From positions 1 to 43,569 of the forward strand of contig JAFTZQ010000023.1 of NCBI GenBank assembly GCA_017464475.1: a DNA stretch of 43,569 nucleotides. Direction: 5' to 3'. This DNA is from Paludibacteraceae bacterium. GTDB taxonomy: Bacteria > Bacteroidota > Bacteroidia > Bacteroidales > Paludibacteraceae. The notes beneath the pieces are model-generated. The model saw only the letters and a program-made list of their open reading frames with translations. It was not told the DNA's origin and searched no databases. Within the stretch, counting starts at the first letter, position 1, and every line of letters starts with the position of its first letter. A program made the translations under genes and the position numbers. This document shows, piece after piece, positions 1,344 to 10,399 of the stretch.

Positions 1344-1535
1344 ATGGCAAAATACAAAGCAATGACCCATACCCAATTGGCGGATTGCGCGGGTGTGTCG
1401 CGTCGCACGTTATATAAATGGTTACATCCGTATGAGGATAAATTACGTAAATTAGGCGTCCAACCAAACGCCAAAGTGATTCCACCAAAGGCTGTACGTT
1501 TTATCTGTGAAACCTTCACGATTGATATAGACTAA
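1344..1535 (+). CDS. DUF4248-like helix-turn-helix protein
   Basis: A 63-residue protein with a helix-turn-helix in its first half (THTQLADCAGVSRRTLYKWL) and a C-terminal segment 'VIPPKAVRFICETF' that matches the layout of Bacteroidales DUF4248 proteins. In related genomes DUF4248 genes commonly precede a small DNA-binding protein, a tiny membrane protein and a peptidoglycan-active protein. The same order is seen here (A/B, holin-like, DUF5675), so this is probably the cassette's DNA-binding regulator. It is separated from gene A by 252 bp containing a promoter. Family assignment is by pattern only. Confidence 0.7.
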   Translation: MAKYKAMTHTQLADCAGVSRRTLYKWLHPYEDKLRKLGVQPNAKVIPPKAVRFICETFTIDID

Positions 1536-1787: not shown

Positions 1788-2093
1788 ATGAGTCAAATCA
1801 AACCTATGGGACTTATCGAGTCCATGTCCGGCAAAGTATGCGAACACTCTGACATGTATTTCTTCCGCAAGAACGGCAAAGTCTTCTCCGGCAAGATCTG
1901 TAATCCTTCCACCAAGGAACCATCAGAAAACCAACTCGCCGCGCAAGCCAAGTTCAAGACCGCACGCACCAATGCCAAGGCAGCCCTTGCAGACCCCGAG
2001 CAGAAAGCTATTTTGGAAGCCGCCTTCAAAGCGCAGAAGAAATACTATTCTTTATATGGTTACGTTTTTGCGCAAGAATATGCGAAACTCTAA
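1788..2093 (+). CDS. Paralog A of a four-member small-protein family
   Basis: A 101-residue protein that I cannot assign to a named family. It aligns by eye with paralogs B (2294-2674), C (5939-6274, minus) and D (9730-10206, minus). Shared features are an N-terminal hydrophobic/P-I-x-x-I/M-S-G-K segment, a central aromatic-lysine stretch (FRKNGKVFSGKICNPSTKE) and a basic, Ala-rich helical C-terminal half (RFK/KFK..R..AKAAL). There is no signal peptide, Cys pair or catalytic motif. Small basic proteins in this slot of DUF4248 cassettes are often DNA-binding, so nucleic-acid binding is a reasonable guess only. A hairpin array follows directly after the stop. Confidence 0.75.
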   Translation: MSQIKPMGLIESMSGKVCEHSDMYFFRKNGKVFSGKICNPSTKEPSENQLAAQAKFKTARTNAKAALADPEQKAILEAAFKAQKKYYSLYGYVFAQEYAKL

Positions 2094-2112
2094 TCTCGTC
2101 ACCGGTCATGCT

Positions 2113-2248
2113 CTCGCGGGTAGTACCGCGAGCAGCACCATCGGTTTAGGCCTTGCGGCTGTTTCCGCAAGCCTGCACCACCGGTCCTGTGCGCGGTCTT
2201 TCCGAGACCGCGTTACCGCCTCTCCGCTACCCGGAATAGCGAAGCGGT
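2113..2248 (+). repeat. Hairpin array 1 between paralogs A and B
   Basis: Four consecutive inverted repeats fill the A-B spacer: CTCGCGG/CCGCGAG at 2113-2132, CTTGCGG/CCGCAAG at 2149-2173, CGCGGTCT/AGACCGCG at 2192-2212, and a nested CGCTA/TAGCG within ACCGC/GCGGT at 2215-2248. Stem sequences differ but the format is constant. The segment 2231-2249 recurs, one base apart, on the minus strand at 9636-9656 downstream of paralog D. Confidence 0.85.
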
Positions 2249-2293
2249 CAGGATAATCCAGATTTTCCGGAAACCTTAATCGTAAATGAATTT

Positions 2294-2674
2294 ATGGCTA
2301 AAGTATTTTTTCTCGACCCGATAGACTACATCAGTGGCAAAATCTCCAAACAGCACCGGACGATGTTTTGCTACCGGCGAGCCTCCAAACTCAAGTACAC
2401 CTCCGTTCACGGCGACCGCTCCACACCGACAACCACAAAGGAGATGGAACTCCGCAATCGTTTCAAGGTTGTGCGCGAGGCAGCCCGTCTGCGTGCGATG
2501 GATCTCATGCACCTGACTTACGACCAGATGGATTTCATCGAGGAGCGCAAGACCAAAGGCACGGCATTCAAGTACACCACCTACAAAGGCTGGCTATTCG
2601 GCAAGGCGTGGAAATGCTTTGACGAAAGCACCAACAAGGTAACTTTGCCCGATCGTCTCAATACTCTCGCATAA
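2294..2674 (+). CDS. Paralog B of the small-protein family
   Basis: A 126-residue protein, unassigned. It starts MAKVFFLDPIDYISGKISKQ; the centre (SKLKYTSVHGDRSTPTTTKE) is nearly identical in type to paralog C (GLKYTSVHGERTTQPSTKE), and it is followed by a basic helix (RNRFKVVREAARLRAMDL). The C-terminal quarter is aromatic and basic (YTTYKGWLFGKAWKCF) and is absent from A. The start ATG at 2294 is fixed by alignment with paralog D (MAEVIYQDP). It lies 17 nt after the end of the TTTTCCGGAAACC segment that closes hairpin array 1. The holin-like gene follows after 13 bp, so A, B and that gene are probably co-transcribed. Confidence 0.75.
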   Translation: MAKVFFLDPIDYISGKISKQHRTMFCYRRASKLKYTSVHGDRSTPTTTKEMELRNRFKVVREAARLRAMDLMHLTYDQMDFIEERKTKGTAFKYTTYKGWLFGKAWKCFDESTNKVTLPDRLNTLA

Positions 2675-2687
2675 AAGGAGATGAACC

Positions 2688-2882
2688 ATGAAAAGGAACT
2701 CTTTTCTCCAACTCCTTGGGGCAGTCGCAATGTGCATCTTCGGTTGCACATTGCTCACCGCCGCCTTTGCCCTCCCTCCCGTCGGCATCATCGACTCTTC
2801 CGTCCTCGTTGCCTTTGGTGAAATCCTCACCTTCGTCGGCTCTCTCGTAGGTATTGACTACCGCTATCGCTACAAAGAATAG
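2688..2882 (+). CDS. Small two-TM holin-like membrane protein
   Basis: A 64-residue protein with a basic N-terminus and two hydrophobic segments (residues about 7-30 and 35-56), then a basic tail (DYRYRYKE). The segment VLVAFGEILTFVGSLVGIDY resembles small membrane proteins of Bacteroidales phage-like lysis modules. It has an unusually good ribosome-binding site for this phylum (AAAAGGAG seven bases before ATG). In comparable loci this position is filled by the tiny 'smalltalk' protein or a holin. Residues GC near position 20 could also read as a lipobox, so a lipoprotein cannot be excluded. Confidence 0.65.
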   Translation: MKRNSFLQLLGAVAMCIFGCTLLTAAFALPPVGIIDSSVLVAFGEILTFVGSLVGIDYRYRYKE

Positions 2883-2925
2883 CAATGTCTATTTCTTATC
2901 TCGCCTTGCTCGAACGATTCCTTCA

Positions 2926-2942
2926 GGCGAATAGGATTCGCC
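2926..2942. repeat. Single short hairpin, array format
   Basis: GGCGAAT-agg-ATTCGCC: a perfect 7-bp stem with a 3-nt loop, the same format as the units of the hairpin array at 6302-6624. Confidence 0.7.
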
Positions 2943-2976
2943 GCTCTAAGGACTAGAATGTTTTTTATGTTTATGT

Positions 2977-3101
2977 CTGCTTTATCGTCCGTCCTCAATA
3001 GAGGCAAGTGTTTGTGCGGACGGGCTATTATAAACTTGTTTATAGTTAGTACGGCTGTGCAAATACTTGTGGGCACGGTAGTGCGACGGACGGTAAAGCA
3101 G
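2977..3101 (+). ncRNA. Cloverleaf-like structured region, candidate RNA
   Basis: An outer 17-bp stem (2977-2993 with 3085-3101, one G-U pair) encloses three arms: CCTC-aata-GAGG (2993-3004, sharing one base with the outer stem), a 13-bp wobble-containing stem 3005-3017 with 3057-3069 capped by TATAAAC-tt-GTTTATA (3029-3044), and GCAC-ggta-GTGC (3073-3084). It is located between the holin-like and DUF5675 genes. It has no protein-coding potential and no known family is recognised. It could be a leader or attenuator for DUF5675, a stand-alone RNA, or a DNA-level hairpin element. The strand is uncertain. Confidence 0.4.
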
Positions 3102-3136
3102 GGTTTTATATGTTTTTTTCTAAAATAATCAACACC

Positions 3137-3955
3137 ATGTTATTATCATTGATTAGAACCAACGCCACGCCCAACGAAACAACGGGCATCCTTCTCATCG
3201 GTGGCAAGCCTTTTTGCGGCACCCTTGAACCACCCACAGTCCCTAACGCTGCCCATCCCAAGGGAGCTATCCCTATCGGGTGGTACAAACTGACGCTGAC
3301 CAAATCCCCGCATTTCGGTCGCGTGCTCCCGCTTGTGAACTATGTCCCGGGCTTTGATGGCATCCGTATCCATGCCGGCAATACGGTCAAAGACACCGCC
3401 GGCTGCATCCTTGTCGGGCAACTTTCCGGCACAACACTCTTCCACTCACGGACGTTCGAACAGGACTTGATTGCCAAACTTCAAAAACACCCAGAAGATG
3501 AACACTACATTGAAATAATCGTGCCCCTTGTGGGGCTAAGAAATTACTACTCCGGACCGTTTTTATACCGAGCATTGCAGCAGTACTCATGCTCTTGCCT
3601 GGCCTGTTCGGTGGAGCACAGCTTGACCTCGACTGACACCCGCCGGCAACTCTCCACCCATTTCCACCGCGACAGCATCTATCTTCATGATAGTACGGCG
3701 GTTGTGTATAAAGCCTCTCCAACTTTCACACCGTGCAGGGTAGATACCCTGCTGGTGCATGAGTGGCACACGCGTTGGCGTGAGAAAGAGGTCATCCGCA
3801 CCGACACTGTCCGAGTAGAAACAACCCGTACAGAAACCATCCCTGTCCGCTATGTCCCGCCCTTCTACAAGTACTGCACAGCCTTTGCAATCCTTGTCCT
3901 CATTGCTCTCCTTCTCCGCCTTGCATGGTGGTTCTATAAAAAGTTCTATCTTTAA
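3137..3955 (+). CDS. DUF5675 domain fused to a spanin-like membrane tail
   Basis: Residues 1-129 form a DUF5675-like domain (GTLEPP, GIRIHAGN at 75-82, TAGCILVG at 87-94). The H-G...GC spacing is reminiscent of L,D-transpeptidases, so a cell-wall role is plausible. From about residue 140 the sequence changes to a Cys-rich linker, a charged HTRWREKEVIRTDTVRVETT segment and a C-terminal membrane helix (about 245-265) before FYKKFYL. That second part resembles the spanin-like proteins of Bacteroides phages. The junction coincides with the dispersed repeat at 3516-3543. The start is set at 3137 because the DUF begins MLLSLIR; an upstream in-frame ATG at 3110 would add nine residues. Confidence 0.7.
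   Translation: MLLSLIRTNATPNETTGILLIGGKPFCGTLEPPTVPNAAHPKGAIPIGWYKLTLTKSPHFGRVLPLVNYVPGFDGIRIHAGNTVKDTAGCILVGQLSGTTLFHSRTFEQDLIAKLQKHPEDEHYIEIIVPLVGLRNYYSGPFLYRALQQYSCSCLACSVEHSLTSTDTRRQLSTHFHRDSIYLHDSTAVVYKASPTFTPCRVDTLLVHEWHTRWREKEVIRTDTVRVETTRTETIPVRYVPPFYKYCTAFAILVLIALLLRLAWWFYKKFYL
3516..3543 (+). repeat. Third copy of the TAATCGTGC...GGCTAAGAAA repeat, inside a CDS
   Basis: TAATCGTGCC, TTGT spacer, GGGGCTAAGAAA: same ends as the 1108-1157 copies. It is translated as part of 'IIVPLVGLRN' exactly where the DUF5675 domain ends. Confidence 0.7.
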
Positions 3956-3975
3956 TAAGGTGTGCGCTCTGCGCA
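3954..3975 (+). repeat. AATAAGGTG hairpin repeat, copy 1
   Basis: AATAAGGTG runs into TGCGC-tct-GCGCA. It begins inside the overlapping TAATAA stop region of the DUF5675 gene. Between here and 4731 no gene is seen; the stretch holds four copies of this repeat and one 5S-derived element. Confidence 0.7.
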
Positions 3976-4012
3976 TAAGCGATCTTTGACATATTGTCTT
4001 CTCTTTCCCCCT

Positions 4013-4040
4013 TTATAAGGTGTTCGCTTCGCTCACGGCT
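4013..4040 (+). repeat. AATAAGGTG-type hairpin repeat, copy 2
   Basis: TATAAGGTGTTCGCTTCGCT followed by CACGGCT. It is identical over the core to copy 5 at 23849-23875, 19.8 kb away, and both lie about 120-150 bp before a minus-strand 5S-derived segment. Confidence 0.75.
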
Positions 4041-4117
4041 GTGTTGAATCTTTGCTATTGGAGACATTTGGAGGGAGGTGAAGCGTCAGTAAAAAGATAC
4101 CTTATGACGGATGCAGA

Positions 4118-4330
4118 CAAAGAAAGAAGCTCCAAGGACGAATCCAAGAGGCTTCTCAAAGTGGCGGCTACCTACTCTCCCACAACGCAGTGCAGTACCA
4201 TCGGCGATGCTGTCTCTCGCTGCTGCCCTCGCCCCTCTGCCGCGCCCCTCTCTGCTCCGCTCTCTCCCGCGCCCGCGCGCCGCAGGCGCGCACAGCCCAC
4301 ACCCCGCATGGCGCACACCGCAGACACCGC
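4118..4330 (-). repeat. 5S rRNA-derived repeat, copy 1
   Basis: Read on the minus strand, 4161-4206 has the hallmark 3' half of Bacteroidales 5S rRNA (CGCCGATGGTACTGC, then GTGGGAGAGTAGGT and AGCCGCCAC). It is followed by a terminator-like hairpin (4126-4155) and a T-rich tract (4118-4125). Upstream of it is a GC-rich, 13-bp-repeat core (4207-4320) in place of the normal 5S middle. The 5S 5' end is missing. ORFs seen in this stretch are artefacts of the GC-rich core. Confidence 0.75.
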
Positions 4331-4407
4331 GCGCGCCTCTGAAGCAGGCTTGGCGATGTCAAACTCCGATTATACCGCCCGACTACATAAAATCTATGGT
4401 CTCTCTC

Positions 4408-4432
4408 AATAAGGTGTTCCCTCTGGTCACGG
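4408..4432 (+). repeat. AATAAGGTG hairpin repeat, copy 3
   Basis: AATAAGGTGTTCCC-tct-GGTCACGG. The centre differs from copy 2 but keeps the GTG...CAC pairing. Confidence 0.65.
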
Positions 4433-4458
4433 TCTTTGTCTATATATAGGGCTTTCCT

Positions 4459-4480
4459 AATAAGGTGTGCTTCGCACGGC
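4459..4480 (+). repeat. AATAAGGTG hairpin repeat, copy 4
   Basis: AATAAGGTGTGC-ttc-GCACGGC: a compact version with a perfect GTGC/GCAC stem. Confidence 0.65.
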
Positions 4481-4637
4481 TGTCATAAGTGCGTAGCACT
4501 GGGGACCCCAGCGTAAACCAATGTAATGTTTGCGATGGGGAGAGCGGAGGCACAAGTCGCCTTTACCAACTAGCGGAGTGGTTTGGTCTTTGCGATCTTG
4601 TTGCCGAACGCGAGGGCAACTACCTGCGGTGTGGAAC

Positions 4638-4664
4638 GTGAACGCATTTTCTCAATACGTTCAC
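4638..4664. promoter_or_regulatory. Inverted repeat upstream of the nitroreductase promoter
   Basis: GTGAACG and CGTTCAC, a perfect 7-bp inverted repeat with a 13-nt spacer, lie directly upstream of the -33 box. This is a possible operator. Confidence 0.4.
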
Positions 4665-4673
4665 TCACATTTA

Positions 4674-4705
4674 TTTGCGTATATCGGAAAATTGTTGTAC
4701 CTTTG
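4674..4705 (+). promoter_or_regulatory. Bacteroidetes promoter of the nitroreductase gene
   Basis: TTTGCGTATATC (-33, extended), 20 bp, then TACCTTTG (-7) followed by CACTCG. The leader is 26 nt. Confidence 0.85.
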
Positions 4706-4731
4706 CACTCGCAAACGTAAACAACACCACA

Positions 4732-5406
4732 ATGACACTATTAGAAGCCATCCAAGCCCGCCACTCTGTGCGGCAGTACATAGACAAACCGATAGAAGCG
4801 GACAAACTGCAATCACTACGTGATACTATCGACCTCTGCAACCGCGAAGGCGGTACACACCTCCAACTAATAACAGACGAGCCGCTTGCTTTCAGCAAAA
4901 GCAATGCCCCTATGTACGGTAAGTTTGCTAATGTGCGTAATTACATTGCTATCATCGCATCCAAAGGTAACGAAGGTAGCGAACTCGCTGGCTATTATGG
5001 AGAAAGGGTAGTGCTCCATGCGCAAACGCTTGGACTAAACACCTGTTGGGTAGGCTTAACTTTCAAGAATATCAAGACTGCCTATACGATCGCACCCGGC
5101 GAAGAACTGAAAGCGGTAATCTCATTAGGATACGGAGTAACACAAGGCGTGCAACACCCGCAAAAGAAATCTATCGAGGATGTAACGATTAACAAATCAA
5201 ACCAAGCGTTACCGGAATGGTTCATCAAAGGAATAGAAGCTGCTCTCTTGGCGCCCACCGCCGTTAATCAACAGAAATTCACCTTCATCCTAAACGCAAA
5301 CCAAAGCGTACAAGCCCAAACTAAATTCTCCCTCATCGGCTACACCCATCTTGATCTCGGTATCGTCAAATACCATTTTGAACTCGCCTCCGGTCATAAG
5401 ATCTAA
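4732..5406 (+). CDS. Nitroreductase family protein (FMN-dependent type)
   Basis: A 224-residue protein. The N-terminus MTLLEAIQARHSVRQY is the classic nitroreductase signature (R-x-S-x-R binding FMN phosphate). 'YYGERVVLHAQTLGLNTCWVGL' and 'LAPTAVNQQKF' match the Nitroreductase_2 subgroup, which reduces nitro or quinone-type compounds with NAD(P)H in the cytoplasm. The ATG at 4732 follows a strong promoter by 26 nt; the in-frame extension upstream would run through the -7 box and is rejected. The gene is monocistronic and lies between inverted 5S-derived repeat copies. A hairpin at 5502-5545 lies downstream. Confidence 0.85.
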   Translation: MTLLEAIQARHSVRQYIDKPIEADKLQSLRDTIDLCNREGGTHLQLITDEPLAFSKSNAPMYGKFANVRNYIAIIASKGNEGSELAGYYGERVVLHAQTLGLNTCWVGLTFKNIKTAYTIAPGEELKAVISLGYGVTQGVQHPQKKSIEDVTINKSNQALPEWFIKGIEAALLAPTAVNQQKFTFILNANQSVQAQTKFSLIGYTHLDLGIVKYHFELASGHKI

Positions 5407-5501
5407 AGCAATACCCGCGCAACCTCTTATCCAATAACCTCTTAACCCTCTAACCCGTATTACTCGCGCGCCCTGCGGTCGCTCGAAAAAAAGAAAGACC
5501 C

Positions 5502-5545
5502 GGAGCGTCCTTCCTTTGAATTGGAAGGAAGTCCGTGACCGCTCC
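5502..5545. other. Nested hairpin downstream of the nitroreductase gene
   Basis: GGAGCG (5502-5507) pairs with CGCTCC (5540-5545) and encloses CTTCCTT/AAGGAAG (5510-5516/5525-5531). There is no T-tract. It may limit transcription; nothing else is seen in 5407-5650 except AACCTCTTA direct repeats. Confidence 0.5.
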
Positions 5546-5658
5546 GCCTAGAAAGGTTATAAAAATGGAAAGACCTATATTTCTTTTTTGAGAGAGACCA
5601 TATCTTTTCTGCCCCGGTAGGAATAACCTGCGTTTGCCTCCCCGTGTATGCCTCATCG

Positions 5659-5889
5659 GTGGCGGAGTGGCGCTATGGGGTGCGGTGTGCGCCATGCGGG
5701 GTGTGGGCTGTGCGCGCCTGCGGCGCGCGGGCGCGGGAGAGAGCGGAGCGGAGAGGGGCGCGGCAGAGGGGCGAGGCAGAGGGGCGAGGGCAGCAGCGAG
5801 AGACAGCATCGCCGATGGTACTGCACTGCGTTGTGGGAGAGTAGGTAGCCGCCACTTTCAGAGCTCCAAGCATCAGCTTGGGGCTCTTT
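5659..5889 (+). repeat. 5S rRNA-derived repeat, copy 2, with terminator
   Basis: The ends are those of a 5S rRNA: GGTGGCGG then GGCGCTATGGGGT at the 5' side, and CGCCGATGGTACTGC, GTGGGAGAGTAGGT, AGCCGCCAC at the 3' side; GTGGCGG and CCGCCAC form helix I. About 130 bp of GC-rich sequence replaces the normal middle, so the whole spans about 200 bp instead of about 115. It includes one 13-bp unit more than copy 1. It ends in a 12-bp terminator stem (5860-5871/5876-5887) with TTT. It is a chimera or pseudogene, not a normal 5S gene. Confidence 0.75.
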
Positions 5890-5938
5890 GTATATGTGGT
5901 GATGCTACCTATTCTCCTTCCATCGGGGGCTGGGGGAC

Positions 5939-6274
5939 TTATCCCTGCTGCTGATCGTACTCCTGTCCGCATACCCTCCACAAGTACGCGCGCATGGTCT
6001 TGGCACCGCCTGCCGTGTCTTTCTGCGCAAGGAAGGCTTGCTGGTCGGCAACGATCTTGGTCAGATCGGCGCGACGTGCGGTGACCATCGCTGCTACTGC
6101 CGAGAAACGCTCACGCGCTTTCAACTCCTTGGTGGAGGGCTGGGTGGTACGCTCGCCGTGGACGGAAGTATATTTCAGTCCGGTGGCTTTCATGTAATTG
6201 TAAATCGTGCGAAATTTCTTCGCGATCTTGCCCGAGATGTGATGAATCGGGTCTTCAAAAAATACTTTTCCACG
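5939..6274 (-). pseudogene. Paralog C of the small-protein family, start codon lost
   Basis: The conserved part begins GKVFFEDPIHHISGKIAKK, continues GLKYTSVHGERTTQPSTKE and a basic helix, and ends 'YLWRVCGQEYDQQQG'. DNA identity with gene B is obvious at the N-terminus (AAAGTATTTTTT...GACCCGAT), but where B has ATGGCT this copy has CGTGGA. No ATG, GTG or TTG start lies in frame near it; the only in-frame ATG is at 6364, inside the hairpin array, and would add 30 unrelated residues. It is therefore probably inactive or dependent on an unusual start. Downstream it abuts the 5S-derived repeat. Confidence 0.65.
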
Positions 6275-6301
6275 GAGTGTTCTCCCAACGGAAAGGAAGA
6301 G

Positions 6302-6624
6302 GCAGCTTCTGCATAAGAGGGAAAGATACAGACCGTTTGTGCTAATAGTGGAAAACCTCGGCAATGGATGTGCCGAGCACAGGACACCGCAGACACATGT
6401 CGGCAGAGCCGATTACCCGCATTCAATGCGGGCGCAATGAACAAAGAAAGGAGCGGCATAGTATGCCGCACAATGAACGTTGCGCAAGCCCGATAGTATC
6501 GGGCGAAACTACCAAGAAAGAGGCGGCTATATCATAGCCGCACAACAGACGAGACAAGAACGGCAAATCTGATTTGCCGGGAAAGGAAGAAAAAGCCAGC
6601 CTGCTTGGATGGAAAGCAGGCTGG
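6302..6624 (-). repeat. Hairpin array 2, phased stem-loops about 36 bp apart
   Basis: Perfect inverted repeats at 6302-6312 (weak, 4 bp), 6357-6377, 6399-6413, 6416-6432, 6453-6469, 6488-6504, 6523-6541, 6561-6579 and 6596-6624. Most have 7-8 bp stems and 3-nt loops (tca, agt, agt, atc, ctg), each with a different stem sequence. Centres of the last six are 35-40 bp apart. The spacers are purine-rich (for example CAATGAACAAAGAAAGGA). It lies directly upstream of paralog C on the same strand. Confidence 0.85.
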
Positions 6625-6680
6625 AGTGAATGTCGCTCGGCGGACTAACGCTGAGAGTTAAACAGCACCGATAGACCCGA

Positions 6681-6700
6681 AATAATGTTCTTACATTATT
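6681..6700 (-). terminator. Hairpin at the end of the lipoprotein gene
   Basis: AATAATGT-tctt-ACATTATT, a perfect 8-bp stem overlapping the stop codon of the 6696-7127 gene. It lacks a clear T-tract. Confidence 0.4.
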
Positions 6701-7127
6701 GCAGTACACCCTGTATGTCATCGCGGACTTGGCGTCCAATTACATCGCTGTAACCATTGACCCATTCATCGCGAATCAATTTCTGTACTTCTGTTTTAAC
6801 CGACAATTGGGTTCTGTCATGATTGAATTTCAGAGTAACTCTTACACGGAATTTTTTGTCACTCATGCCATTCGACTTACGGTAATAGTTCCAAGCAGAA
6901 CGTGCATAACCACCATCTTTGTTAATCATCTCCATTTCATACTTCTCTGTTAATAAGTCTAGAGCCGTAGAGAAGGCTTTGTCATAATCAAAATTTTCGT
7001 GAATCATTACACGCATCCAGTCTGCTTGACCTTTGTGCCATCCTTTTACAGAAGCACATCCTAATGCCAGCATTACAAATATTCCCGCCACGATGCAGGA
7101 GCATACCATTTTAATTGTTTTTTTCAT
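6696..7127 (-). CDS. Putative lipoprotein, unknown function
   Basis: A 143-residue protein. The signal peptide (MKKTIKMVCSCIVAGIF...) ends in LALGCASV, a lipobox with Cys near residue 24. The mature domain contains 'YARSAWNYYRKSNGMSDKKFRVRVTLKFNHDRTQLSVKTEV' split across alternating strands, suggesting a small beta-rich periplasmic domain. No named family is recognised. Its first 17 bases overlap the end of the upstream membrane-protein gene, so the two are translationally coupled and should act in the same envelope process. Confidence 0.7.
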   Translation of the reverse strand: MKKTIKMVCSCIVAGIFVMLALGCASVKGWHKGQADWMRVMIHENFDYDKAFSTALDLLTEKYEMEMINKDGGYARSAWNYYRKSNGMSDKKFRVRVTLKFNHDRTQLSVKTEVQKLIRDEWVNGYSDVIGRQVRDDIQGVLQ

Positions 7128-7554
7128 AATAAATTTGTTTTAATTTGATTAATAATGCAAATAGCAAAATAGCTGCTATATAAAATATTATGTCTAAAAT
7201 ATCACCTGTTCCCGGAAAATATCCCAAGAATTGCAATATTTCCAAAATAAGTGCGAGAGAAATTATCGGAATACAAAACATCCATTTTATACGCTTATCT
7301 CTTGTCCAAAAACCTTCCATAAACAATAAATACGATAACATCCATAGACCATCTGTCAAATTATATTTTACCCATAGTGGTAAATGGATAGAATGATTTC
7401 TAATGAAATTAAAAGAATCATTATAGTAATCCATTCCAAGCCATGAGTATAATGCCATATCTCCATCCCTATTACTCACGTAAATATATAATGTTAATAT
7501 AAGCAGAAATATAGCTGATAGTATGGTTGTCAGACTGATAAGCGTTTTAGACAT
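7111..7554 (-). CDS. VanZ-like multi-pass membrane protein
   Basis: A 147-residue protein with four hydrophobic segments (about residues 6-26, 66-81, 92-108, 118-138). The pair 'ILQFLGYFPGTGDILDIIFYIAAILL' contains the E...Q...G...DILD pattern typical of VanZ-like proteins, a family of unknown biochemical role linked to envelope stress and glycopeptide tolerance. It sits between a small secreted protein and a lipoprotein on the same strand with very short gaps, forming a three-gene unit. Confidence 0.65.
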   Translation of the reverse strand: MSKTLISLTTILSAIFLLILTLYIYVSNRDGDMALYSWLGMDYYNDSFNFIRNHSIHLPLWVKYNLTDGLWMLSYLLFMEGFWTRDKRIKWMFCIPIISLALILEILQFLGYFPGTGDILDIIFYIAAILLFALLIKLKQIYYEKNN

Positions 7555-7578
7555 TTCACATACAAATAAATCCCCTAA

Positions 7579-7884
7579 TTAGCATTTTCTTAAAGTAACA
7601 CCTCCAACATTCACCCACAGCAACTTACCTGTATTGCTGTTGTATTCATATTTACATGCGTAGATTTGTTTCCCATTCTCATCCAGCAAAAGTAAATAAC
7701 CATCTTTGATAGTATAACTTCCTTCATAAGAATGACTATCATTCCAGAAAACCATTCTGCCAGAAGAATACAATGTTAATTCTGCGCCATTTCCACAAAC
7801 TTTGTGCGTTCCGCGCAATACAATTGCATTAGCACTTAATGATAAAGCAAACGCTGCAACTAATATTAATAATACTTTTTTCAT
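7579..7884 (-). CDS. Small secreted protein, unknown function
   Basis: A 101-residue protein with a clear signal peptide (MKKVLLILVAAFALSLSANA) and an 80-residue beta-rich mature part that has two cysteines (CGNG near the N-terminus and a final RKC) plus one central Cys. The pattern 'YEGSYTIKDGYLLLLDENGKQIY' is a typical antiparallel sheet. I do not recognise it. It is first in the 7884-6696 unit; the gap to the next gene is 24 bp. No clear -7/-33 promoter was found upstream. Confidence 0.65.
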   Translation of the reverse strand: MKKVLLILVAAFALSLSANAIVLRGTHKVCGNGAELTLYSSGRMVFWNDSHSYEGSYTIKDGYLLLLDENGKQIYACKYEYNSNTGKLLWVNVGGVTLRKC

Positions 7885-8004
7885 TTTTTTTAGAGCCGTT
7901 CTATCCCATCGCCACTTCGGTTTAAAATCTATGTATTAGCCTACTCTTTATTGGATTTTCGGCGTTCTCCGTCAAGTACCATGAATCTGCAGTGAGGCAC
8001 ATAA

Positions 8005-8167
8005 AAAAGCGCGGTACTTCGTATCGCTTCAACAGGATTCTTGAGGATTTACCGGACTACCTTACATTTCCTATATCTATCGAACAAAGCCCACGCTGAA
8101 AACGTGAGCATCGTGCTTTGTTCTCGGAAATGTAATTCTTGTCAAGTGTCCGGCTTTTCAAGAATCC
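8005..8167 (-). ncRNA. Rod-like structured RNA candidate with terminator
   Basis: Five nested stems share one axis: GGATTCTTG/CAAGAATCC (8035-8043/8159-8167), CCGGAC/GTCCGG (8052-8057/8148-8153), TTACATTTCC/GGAAATGTAA (8062-8071/8126-8135), GAACAAAGC/GCTTTGTTC (8082-8090/8115-8123) and CACG/CGTG (8092-8095/8103-8106). The internal loops are asymmetric and alternate sides. On the minus strand it is followed by AAGCG...CGCTT and TTTT at about 8028-8005, a plausible Rho-independent terminator. The overall rod shape recalls 6S RNA, but no sequence signature was recognised; a MITE-like DNA element is the alternative. No gene is seen in 7885-8237. Confidence 0.5.
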
Positions 8168-8237
8168 AAGTATAAGCGCAACGCTATAATTCTATGTATA
8201 TTGCCTTTTAGTTGTTATGCTTCATAGGCGGGTGGTG

Positions 8238-9419
8238 TTATTTGTTATTGTTATTTAGTTCACTACCAATAATCTTCAGCAGTTCTTCTTGGTCGGGTAA
8301 AGCCTTTCGCAGACGTTCCGGCATGTCGGTCGCAGTTTTATAGGTTGCGACTCCCATCGGTTTGTCATAGTCCTGAATCATGTACTCCACATACGACTTG
8401 TCGGCACTCTTACAAAGCACAATGCCTATTGACGGATTCTCATGTGGTTTGCGTACGAAATCATCCAACAGGCGCAAATATCCATTAAGTTCGCCAAGAT
8501 AAATCTGCTTGAACGGTCCTGTTTTCAGCTCGATAGCCACCAGACAATCCAACTCACGATTGAAGAAAAGCAAATCAATGCGATGTTCATGTCCGTGTAC
8601 GTTGAGCGTGTATTGGTTGCCGACAAAGAGAAAATCCTTGCCGAAACGAAGAATGAACTGCTTGATATTGTCCACTATCTTTTGCTCCACCACCGTCTCG
8701 TTAACCTCTTCAATATCACGCGCGCCTAATTCCTCGACGTTAATAAAATCGAGCATGTATTGGTCTTTGAACGCCAAAATAGCACGTTTTGCAAGGCTTC
8801 CGGACGGTAACTTTTGCAAGAAATTATTGGGTAGTTCTCCTCTTTGCGCATAGAGATTTTGTCTGATGCAGTTTTTGATTCCATCCGGTGTCAGGTGCTC
8901 CCGTGCACAAAGCGAGATATAAAACATCCGCTCTTGGCGGGATTTGGTTCCTATGAGGATATTGGTGTGATGCGTAAAACCTATACTGCGGAAATCATTT
9001 CCCGGGAACGCATCAGTAGAAGGGAAATTAAACGGCAGTATTTGAATTTCGTTCATTTGAATGAGCGAATTGATTTCCGGCAAATCGCTCGTTTGAATGA
9101 GCGATTTTGCTTCCGGTGTCTGCGCATCCAATTCTCGCCATTCTTCATAAAAGGTTCTCATCTTCTTTATATTAGCTTCCGAGAACCCCCTGAGCCCGGG
9201 CATGTCATGTGAGAGCAAATGGCTGATAGTTGCAATCGCAGCAGTTCCCCATTGGGCTTTGCGAGAGTAGTGCGAGATAAAACGACCAACAGAATAATAC
9301 AGCATCAACTGGATGTTATTCACACCTCGTGCAGCTTCGTACTGGGCACTAAGAATGGCATTCTTAATCGTTTCTGCTGCCTTTATATATGATTGTTGTA
9401 TCTCGTTTGAGGTTGCCAT
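8238..9419 (-). CDS. DUF1016 (YhcG-type) PD-(D/E)XK nuclease domain protein
   Basis: A 393-residue protein. The N-terminal DUF1016_N helical domain (residues 1-100; 'GWGTAAI'-like AQWGTAAIATISHLLS, LRGFSEANIKKMRTFYEEW) precedes a C-terminal nuclease domain with D282, E297 and K299 (HRIDLLFFNRELDCLVAIELK). The family is annotated as putative nuclease and is often found near restriction or defence genes. The variable linker at residues 105-125 contains a short internal duplication (SLIQTSDLPEI/NSLIQMNEI) from a repeated GTTTGAATGAGCGATTT-like sequence. A strong promoter lies at 9493-9524. A CCGGTT-tag-AACCGG hairpin sits in the leader (9452-9466). Confidence 0.85.
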   Translation of the reverse strand: MATSNEIQQSYIKAAETIKNAILSAQYEAARGVNNIQLMLYYSVGRFISHYSRKAQWGTAAIATISHLLSHDMPGLRGFSEANIKKMRTFYEEWRELDAQTPEAKSLIQTSDLPEINSLIQMNEIQILPFNFPSTDAFPGNDFRSIGFTHHTNILIGTKSRQERMFYISLCAREHLTPDGIKNCIRQNLYAQRGELPNNFLQKLPSGSLAKRAILAFKDQYMLDFINVEELGARDIEEVNETVVEQKIVDNIKQFILRFGKDFLFVGNQYTLNVHGHEHRIDLLFFNRELDCLVAIELKTGPFKQIYLGELNGYLRLLDDFVRKPHENPSIGIVLCKSADKSYVEYMIQDYDKPMGVATYKTATDMPERLRKALPDQEELLKIIGSELNNNNK

Positions 9420-9492
9420 ATTCTGTTATTTTTGCAACTTTCGGCTGCAAACCGGTTTAGAACCGGAGCAAGATATTTTGCACTTTTGGGTG

Positions 9493-9524
9493 CAAAGGTA
9501 CTGCTTTTTTTTGATATATGCAAG
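9493..9524 (-). promoter_or_regulatory. Promoter of the DUF1016 gene
   Basis: Minus strand CTTGCATATATC (-33, extended), 20 bp, TACCTTTG then CACCC. The leader is about 75 nt and holds a perfect 6-bp hairpin. Confidence 0.85.
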
Positions 9525-9558
9525 GGTTTGGGGTGAAAAAGCGTACGAGGGGTGTCGT

Positions 9559-9608
9559 TTTTAGGCCGATTTATGCCGGAATAGGCAGATATAGGCCGTC
9601 TTAGGGGA
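9559..9608 (-). repeat. 10-bp phased repeat upstream of the DUF1016 promoter
   Basis: On the plus strand the units are TTTTAGGCCG, ATTTATGCCG, GAATAGGCAG, ATATAGGCCG and a decayed TCTTAGGGGA, directly in tandem. This is one helical turn per unit. Confidence 0.7.
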
Positions 9609-9609
9609 G

Positions 9610-9728
9610 CAAGGTACCGGAGAATCAGGAAAGACCGGACCGCTACGCTATTCCGGAAAATCGCTCTTTTGGGGCGATGCTATACCATGCGGAACGGGAC
9701 TGCTCGCAGAACTCGCGGACACAGGACA
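9610..9728 (-). repeat. Hairpin array 3 downstream of paralog D
   Basis: On the minus strand directly after the D stop there are ATCGC...GCGAT (around 9660-9677) and a CCGGAATAGCGTAGCGGTCC segment (9637-9656) that matches 2231-2249 of array 1. A GTGTCCTGTGTCCGCG motif at 9714-9729 is shared with array 2 (6373-6389, complement) and, in shorter form, with array 1 (2183-2196). Confidence 0.65.
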
Positions 9729-9729
9729 C

Positions 9730-10206
9730 CTATTCCATTTCGCGGAGGAGGCAGGTGCGGATGAAGGCATCAAGGCGGAAGTACTGCTTGCGCTTGCCGG
9801 TTTTCGGGTCAATGGGTGCATCGGGTTCGGGCTTTTGAAGTTGGGCTTTGAAGCGGTCTTGCCAGTATTGGAGCGTAGCAAGGTCTTCGGGCGTAGGGGT
9901 GTAGTCCGACGGAAGCGCAGGGTTGGTCGATTGGGAGGCTTGCGCTTTGAGGTATTTGGCAGCCATGAGAATACGCTTGGTCTCGGCACACGCGGCTTTG
10001 AACCGAAGCTGATGCTCCAGTTCCTTGCCTTTCGCGGGATTCTTCTTCCAGTTGCGCGGGTAGAGAATCTGGTACGCTTCAGGCTTGGAGGCTCCGATGA
10101 TTTTGCCGTTTGCGTCACGGTAATACTTGCGGCGGTGGATGGTTCCGTCCTTGGTCAGTGTGCCGCGGATCTCTTGGACGGGATCTTGATAAATAACTTC
10201 TGCCAT
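9730..10206 (-). CDS. Paralog D of the small-protein family
   Basis: A 158-residue protein, the longest member. MAEVIYQDPVQEIRGTLTKD aligns with the N-termini of B and C. The centre (KYYRDANGKIIGASKPEAYQ) is a variant of the aromatic-lysine segment, and the helical basic part (HQLRFKAACAETKRILMAAKYL) corresponds to the C-terminal helix of A. The tail is Pro/Gln-rich (PALPSDYTPTPEDLATLQYW) and ends in a segment (FRLDAFIRTCLLREME). It has its own strong promoter and a leader of about 100 nt with four 11-bp repeats, so it is expressed as an independent unit. Function unknown. Confidence 0.75.
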   Translation of the reverse strand: MAEVIYQDPVQEIRGTLTKDGTIHRRKYYRDANGKIIGASKPEAYQILYPRNWKKNPAKGKELEHQLRFKAACAETKRILMAAKYLKAQASQSTNPALPSDYTPTPEDLATLQYWQDRFKAQLQKPEPDAPIDPKTGKRKQYFRLDAFIRTCLLREME

Positions 10207-10296: not shown

Positions 10297-10318
10297 TATA
10301 CTATGCTAAAACTGCGTG

Positions 10319-10350
10319 CAAAGGTACGACAATTTTTTGACATACGCAAG
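10319..10350 (-). promoter_or_regulatory. Promoter of paralog D
   Basis: Minus strand CTTGCGTATGTC (-33, extended), 20 bp, TACCTTTG then CACGC. It drives a leader of about 105 nt. Confidence 0.85.
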
Positions 10351-10399
10351 GATTTTCGGTAAAAAGTGCTCGAAAAGGCACTTTTTACGTTATTGGCTA

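What the first reader, a model, noticed from the sequence alone, without database searches (positions are those of the whole stretch)
1788..10206. A four-member family of small proteins (A-D) tied to hairpin arrays
A (1788), B (2294), C (5939, minus) and D (9730, minus) share an N-terminal D-P-(I/V)-x-x-I-x-G-(K/T)-(I/L) segment, a Lys/Tyr centre and a basic helix, yet match no family I recognise. The arrays lie between A and B, upstream of C, and downstream of D, as if the ancestral unit were first gene - array - second gene. The arrays share sequence: 2231-2249 recurs on the minus strand at 9637-9656, and a (G)GTGTCCTGTG-type motif lies in array 2 and array 3, with a shorter GGTCCTGTG form in array 1. 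Two copies (A, D) have real promoters; C lost its start. A protein family with a matched DNA or RNA hairpin element suggests binding, mobility or regulation by these hairpins.
Basis: partly seen in the sequence, partly recalled or inferred. Interest (0 to 1): 0.78.

Follow-up and report, generated by a model that had tools for sequence, protein, structure and literature searches.

The report
Multi-copy small-protein operons and hairpin repeats
In a rumen-type gut bacterium, a large undescribed family of small proteins sits next to arrays of RNA-like hairpins, but the two look like separate features of the same genus that only sometimes lie side by side.

Summary
B and C are 46% identical; A and B align full length by profiles (99.1%); D joins over its N-terminal half (93-97%). 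The 1.9-Mb genome holds about 13 A-type, 15 B-type and 7 D-type places; no curated family model reaches its cut-off. In the genomes searched, A and B are confined to one genus. The usual unit is A - (small lipoprotein) - B.

The hairpins are real too: array 2 has 7, array 1 has 3, array 3 none of stem 6 or more though it shares modules. In relatives, array 2's stems change on both sides and stay paired.

The coupling is weak. Twelve close orthologues have A-B gaps of 19-99 nt without an array; two or three others have one. D's three closest homologues lack array 3. Array 2 stands beside gene 6696-7127 in a relative without any C, itself a start-less copy. Hairpins are denser near A-B genes (1.7 times; own genome 3 times), hardly near D genes (1.1 times). 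I read the arrays as a REP/BIME-like mosaic repeat of this genus. What the proteins do is open; B's C-terminal half tends to be genome-specific.

The parts
1344..1535 (+). small HTH-like gene upstream of A (DUF4248-like only weakly)
   Evidence: HTH_23 21.6 bits, DUF4248 13.0 bits, both under cut-off
1788..2093 (+). A: family member, first gene of an A - B pair
2113..2290 (+). array 1: three hairpins plus the CCGGAATAGCG..CCGG module in the A-B gap
   Evidence: also in L061 (B 99% identical); other clusters in the gap of L078, after A in L097 and in part in G048; absent from 12 close orthologues with 19-99-nt gaps
2294..2674 (+). B: family member
2688..2882 (+). small ORF after B, membrane-protein-like by eye
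   Evidence: no family over cut-off
3110..3955 (+). ORF with DUF5675 domain
   Evidence: PF18925, E 3.2e-24
5939..6271 (-). C: B-type copy without its start codon (homology begins at codon 2), likely a 5'-truncated pseudogene
6357..6627 (-). array 2: seven hairpins, with T-rich linkers on the strand of the gene 6696-7127
6696..7127 (-). lipoprotein-like gene (by eye) that array 2 follows; same order in genome G021 without a family gene
9617..9730 (-). array 3: GGTGTCCTGTG and CCGGAATAGCG..CCGG modules starting at D's stop codon, no hairpin of stem 6 or more
9730..10206 (-). D: distant family member

Best explanation
Two largely independent features overlap here. (1) A, B, C and D belong to a multi-copy protein family, in the genomes searched confined to one genus, whose recurrent unit is an A - B pair, often with a small lipoprotein gene between. 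Shown: homology, copy number, gene order. Inferred: A and B are cytoplasmic partner proteins with a conserved helical half, in a module that resembles the DUF4248 - HU - smalltalk - amidase operons I recall from Bacteroides. (2) The arrays are a REP/BIME-like mosaic repeat of the genus, made of interchangeable modules, chiefly hairpins of a GC-rich stem closed by AT-NNN-AT. Shown: recurrence at many loci, compensatory stem changes. Inferred: they act as folded RNA behind genes (termination or 3'-end protection) and spread by recombination or an unidentified enzyme. Their contact with family genes is mostly due to both being common in small-gene, gap-rich regions.
For: Family. Pair and lipoprotein; smalltalk model 20.5 bits, E 3e-4, on one of two lipoproteins tested. 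Arrays not fixed to genes: array 1 absent in 12 close orthologues, array 3 absent behind the 94-95% identical D homologues L045, L205, L206, array 2 beside gene 6696-7127 without C. Genus-wide hairpins: 119 of 212 loop-3 elements have the AT apex; GCGGCATNNNATGCCGC in 14 of 61 genus genomes (own included) and in 1 of 147 other genomes of the order. Structure: 97.1% of cells paired, 8 of 48 pairs changed on both sides, 0 of 500 shuffles as high. Background density near D genes.
Against: Hairpins are 1.7 times denser near A-B genes and 3 times in the own-genome sample; clusters 1.18 against 0.48 per 10 kb, on 6 and 5 (these replace, whose masks hid part of the A-B gaps). Uncorrected for coding DNA, clusters were 8 in 63 kb near and 10 in 456 kb far. 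Family and hairpin class are restricted to the same genus. Array modules start at or near the stop codon of two D-type genes only 37% identical (window and L200). A place behind genes is only a trend (17 of 26 arrays, p 0.08). No Y1 transposase match in the own genome.
Confidence: 0.66

Rival explanations
1. One reading: the family proteins bind the hairpins (as DNA or RNA) and the two form one system of regulation or mobility.
For: Co-restriction to one genus in the genomes searched; hairpins 1.7 times denser near A-B genes, 3 times in the own-genome sample; clusters in or at the A-B gap of L061, L078, L097 and G048; arrays behind D-type genes in G016 and G050.
Against: 12 close orthologous A-B gaps and the three closest D homologues lack arrays; arrays occur without family genes; density near D genes close to background, 0.74 and 0.65 per kb.
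Confidence: 0.16
2. The arrays are series of transcription terminators or 3'-end stabilisers selected for each host gene, not a spreading repeat.
For: A strong GC hairpin followed by a T run heads array 2 on the sense strand of the preceding gene; T-rich linkers; 17 of 26 arrays follow a sense gene.
Against: The same modules with 77-93% identity stand behind other genes in different genomes, and single elements show no clear bias to convergent gaps (37 tandem, 18 convergent, 7 divergent against 144, 53 and 31 kb).
Confidence: 0.3
3. The A - lipoprotein - B unit is a mobile or phage-derived element.
For: Dispersed copies; DUF5675 and a small membrane-protein-like ORF beside the window's copy; N-terminal halves of some own B copies 98% identical in DNA.
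Against: No relative in viral contigs for the B alignment or L235, none for B in plasmids, no credible phage hit for A; no integrase or transposase recognised by eye in the ORF lists (not searched by model); C-terminal halves of own copies only 83-91% identical in DNA.
Confidence: 0.08

Closest known systems
REP / BIME repetitive extragenic palindromes (GTAG and CGTC families; PMC3733652, passages seen)
   Same: Short intergenic palindromes, single or in mosaic clusters, many copies, paired stems, sometimes inside coding sequence.
   Different: Stems of many sequences with a frequent AT-NNN-AT apex and T-rich linkers of about 17-20 nt; no Y1 transposase match in the own genome or in the array-bearing G016, G021, G033, G034, G041 and G050, though array-bearing G009 and G035 have one.
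smalltalk protein (NCBIfam NF033879) and its operons in Bacteroides (gene order recalled, not tested)
   Same: Small lipoprotein-like ORF in the middle of a small-gene operon.
   Different: Score 20.5 under the 24.7 cut-off and a longer C-terminal tail; A and B stand where HU and amidase are recalled to stand.
SGKVGN-type small proteins of other Bacteroidales (e.g. L235:1453-1743)
   Same: N-terminal SGK..VFR..GK pattern and a later Q..R-F pattern; hhalign 96.5% to the A profile.
   Different: One to three matches per genome in 3 of 147 other order genomes; about 90 extra C-terminal residues in 5 of 7 loci, weakly Ig-like in 2 of 5; no family over its cut-off.

Membership tests
REP/BIME (GTAG or CGTC REPs) | 20-40-bp palindromes, multi-copy, intergenic | tested here: inconclusive
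   Many elements are only 17-19 nt; non-coding density 0.65-1.4 per kb (2.4 in one small set) against 0.20-0.36 in coding sequence
REP/BIME (GTAG or CGTC REPs) | Occurrence in mosaic clusters | tested here: met
REP/BIME (GTAG or CGTC REPs) | GTAG or CGTC tag at one end of the palindrome | not tested
   no systematic scan made
REP/BIME with RAYT | Y1 transposase (PF01797) in the genome | tested here: not met
   no match at E 0.001 in G000 (71% complete) nor in array-bearing G016, G021, G033, G034, G041, G050; but G009 and G035, also array-bearing, do match; over the cut-off in 18 of 61 genus genomes
smalltalk protein NF033879 | score over the curated cut-off | tested here: not met
   20.5 against 24.7 bits for one of two lipoproteins; not listed for the other
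DUF4248 (PF14053), for the gene 1344-1535 | score over the gathering cut-off | tested here: not met
   13.0 against 27 bits
HU/IHF DNA-binding proteins, for A and B | sequence match to an HU model | tested here: not met
   no HU family among matches at E up to 1
HU/IHF DNA-binding proteins, for A and B | HU fold | tested here: inconclusive

The most novel reading that the evidence does not exclude
The family and the hairpin arrays are one genus-specific system after all: the many A-B pairs are RNA- or DNA-binding proteins whose N-terminal halves read different hairpin stems from the array 'dictionary', while the C-terminal half of B, which tends to be alike within a genome and to differ between genomes, docks all of them on one shared partner.
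Probability: 0.09. Interest if true: 0.8.

Novelty: new variant of a known kind. Interest (0 to 1): 0.42.

Why it matters
A 1.9-Mb genome that keeps some 35 places of an unnamed protein family probably gains something from it, and the family is not named by the four annotation libraries tried. The hairpin arrays are a REP-like repeat in which whole stems are swapped while linkers stay, a natural case for asking whether structure, not sequence, is selected. Showing that the two are mostly separate tempers a protein-target hypothesis before bench work.

Full report
What the window is. The window is a contig of a 1.9-Mb, 71%-complete genome bin. The best 80 of 123 relatives found with the B alignment are Bacteroidales bins, many from rumen or gut and many labelled Paludibacteraceae.

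The family. B and C share 46% identity over 95 residues; pairwise BLAST E-values are 2e-4 for A-B, 2e-5 for A-C, 2e-4 for B-D, 0.002 for A-D and 0.025 for C-D. Profile comparison: A against B 99.1% over the full length, D against A 96.5% and D against B 93.3%, both over the N-terminal part only. Searching the own genome gave 18 matches with B, 19 with A and 8 with D, overlapping in part. By profile there are 13 strong A-type places and 15 B-type places, two of them cut by contig ends; D has 7 places (8 matches). The A profile found 2 marginal matches in 147 other genomes of the order, the B profile none in 295 other genomes of the phylum. D-type genes occur in 46 of 61 genus genomes, own included, at E 1e-5. 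One marginal match, a 97-residue protein (L235), aligns with the A profile at 96.5%, so the N-terminal part may belong to a wider undescribed Bacteroidales group.

The operon. Of the 13 A places, 12 have a B on the same strand downstream, two of these B cut by a contig end; the A on contig C3 has none found. C and two B copies at contig ends have no A in view. Among nine A-B loci printed, five gaps hold a small lipoprotein ORF (L041, L043, L047, L050, L052); in L046 it follows B. One of two such proteins tested matches the smalltalk model below its cut-off. Other small genes precede several A genes. I recall, but did not test, that Bacteroides has DUF4248 - HU - smalltalk - amidase operons of similar order.

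Array 2. It has seven perfect hairpins in 270 nt, the longest series in the 174 kb first looked at. DNA search of 61 genus genomes found related stretches in 23, own included. In G021 the same three genes as in the window (7884 down to 6696) are followed by the same array, and no family gene was found in that 14-kb stretch. In other genomes parts of it, 77-93% identical, stand behind other genes. Six aligned copies, some of them partial, keep 97.1% of pair cells, with 8 of 48 pairs changed on both sides and no shuffle of 500 as high; sliding the partners by 1-3 columns drops pairing to 27-39%. So the hairpins are conserved as structures. C's homology to a sister copy starts at codon 2: it is a truncated copy that happens to lie beside the array.

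Arrays 1 and 3. Twelve close orthologues of the A-B pair (L062-L068, L071-L074, L076) have gaps of 19-99 nt without a cluster, though three of them hold one or two single hairpins. A cluster is present in the gap of L061, the 99% identical relative, and of L078, just after A in L097 (B cut by the contig end), and in part in G048. Of 56 gaps between neighbouring family genes, 3 hold a cluster. The three D homologues at 94-95% identity are followed by unrelated sequence. A D-type gene at 37% identity (L200) is followed at its stop codon by a module like array 3, and one in G016 (35%) by an array, which is evidence for some affinity of arrays for gene ends or for D genes.

Hairpins in general. 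Among 212 distinct loop-3 hairpins of stem 7 or more in the loci held, 119 close the loop with AT; an even spread over 16 pairs would give 13. These loci include stretches chosen for arrays. One stem, GCGGCATNNNATGCCGC, occurs in 14 of 61 genus genomes and 1 of 147 others of the order; the reversed control pattern hit none of the 61 and 1 of the 147. Density of hairpins within 300 nt of family genes and farther off, in non-coding DNA: 1.41 and 0.85 per kb in 80 A-B loci, 0.74 and 0.65 in 29 D loci, 2.44 and 0.79 in 400 kb of the own genome, the last on 10 and 33 elements. Clusters of three: 6 near and 5 far in the A-B loci, 0 near and 4 far in the own sample, none in the D loci. An earlier count with a coarser mask gave lower near values for the A-B and D loci. 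The loci are not independent, since many are orthologues, and they were chosen for the family; the window itself and the stretches are left out of these densities.

Evolution of B. In 76 B genes (63 of the 80 loci, those with a usable frame, plus 13 own copies), within-genome identity is 0.70 for the N-terminal and 0.76 for the C-terminal half; between genomes 0.48 and 0.38. For 47 genes in 9 genomes with three or more copies, the best match lies at home for 27 by the N-half and 34 by the C-half. Six have their best N-half match abroad and their best C-half match at home, two of these by only two points; one (the window's B) is the reverse. The clearest case is L091: N-half 98% like own-genome L049, C-half 94% like its own paralogues and at most 78% like any other. 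L049 itself shows it less sharply (0.97 at home, 0.92 abroad). Synonymous codons are not homogenised. This hints at a shared, genome-specific partner for B's C-terminal half; it is an inference.

Verdict.

Noticed in passing
window 4154-4322 and 5681-5862: Inverted repeats, 98-99% complementary, flank the nitroreductase gene 4675-5406; the part GCCGATGGTACTGCA..GTGGGAGAGTAGGTAGCCGCC looks like the 3' half of a 5S rRNA (recalled; Rfam did not call it). Could be remnant rRNA ends or an assembly effect.
   Followed up: partly
window 7938-7972, minus strand: Rfam DUF805b RNA motif (37.3 bits, cut-off 35.6) upstream of the gene cluster 7884-6696.
   Followed up: no
window 9487-9539 and 10313-10365: 79% repeat, apparently the promoter regions of the YhcG-like nuclease gene (8238-9419) and of D; similar CTTTGCACTCG repeat at 1661-1680 and 4692-4711.
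   Followed up: partly
window 8238-9419, minus strand: DUF1016/YhcG PDDEXK nuclease-like gene; distant relatives lie in several of the array-chosen stretches of other genomes (L186, L187, L188, L192, L194, L199), perhaps only because the family is common.
   Followed up: no
L043:3358-3376: A hairpin of the array type (TGTCGGATAGTATCCGACA) lies inside the coding start of the small lipoprotein gene, like palindromes that insert in frame.
   Followed up: no
L199:8150-8320: In G048 a short tandem repeat (unit about 35 nt with GCGATTGCAACTTTACAGTTTTGCAATCTCTT) lies between A and B behind the array part.
   Followed up: no
contigs C15 end and C16 start of G000 (L053, L054): B copies sit at contig ends and share their upstream sequence, as if repeated B genes had broken the assembly.
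   Followed up: no
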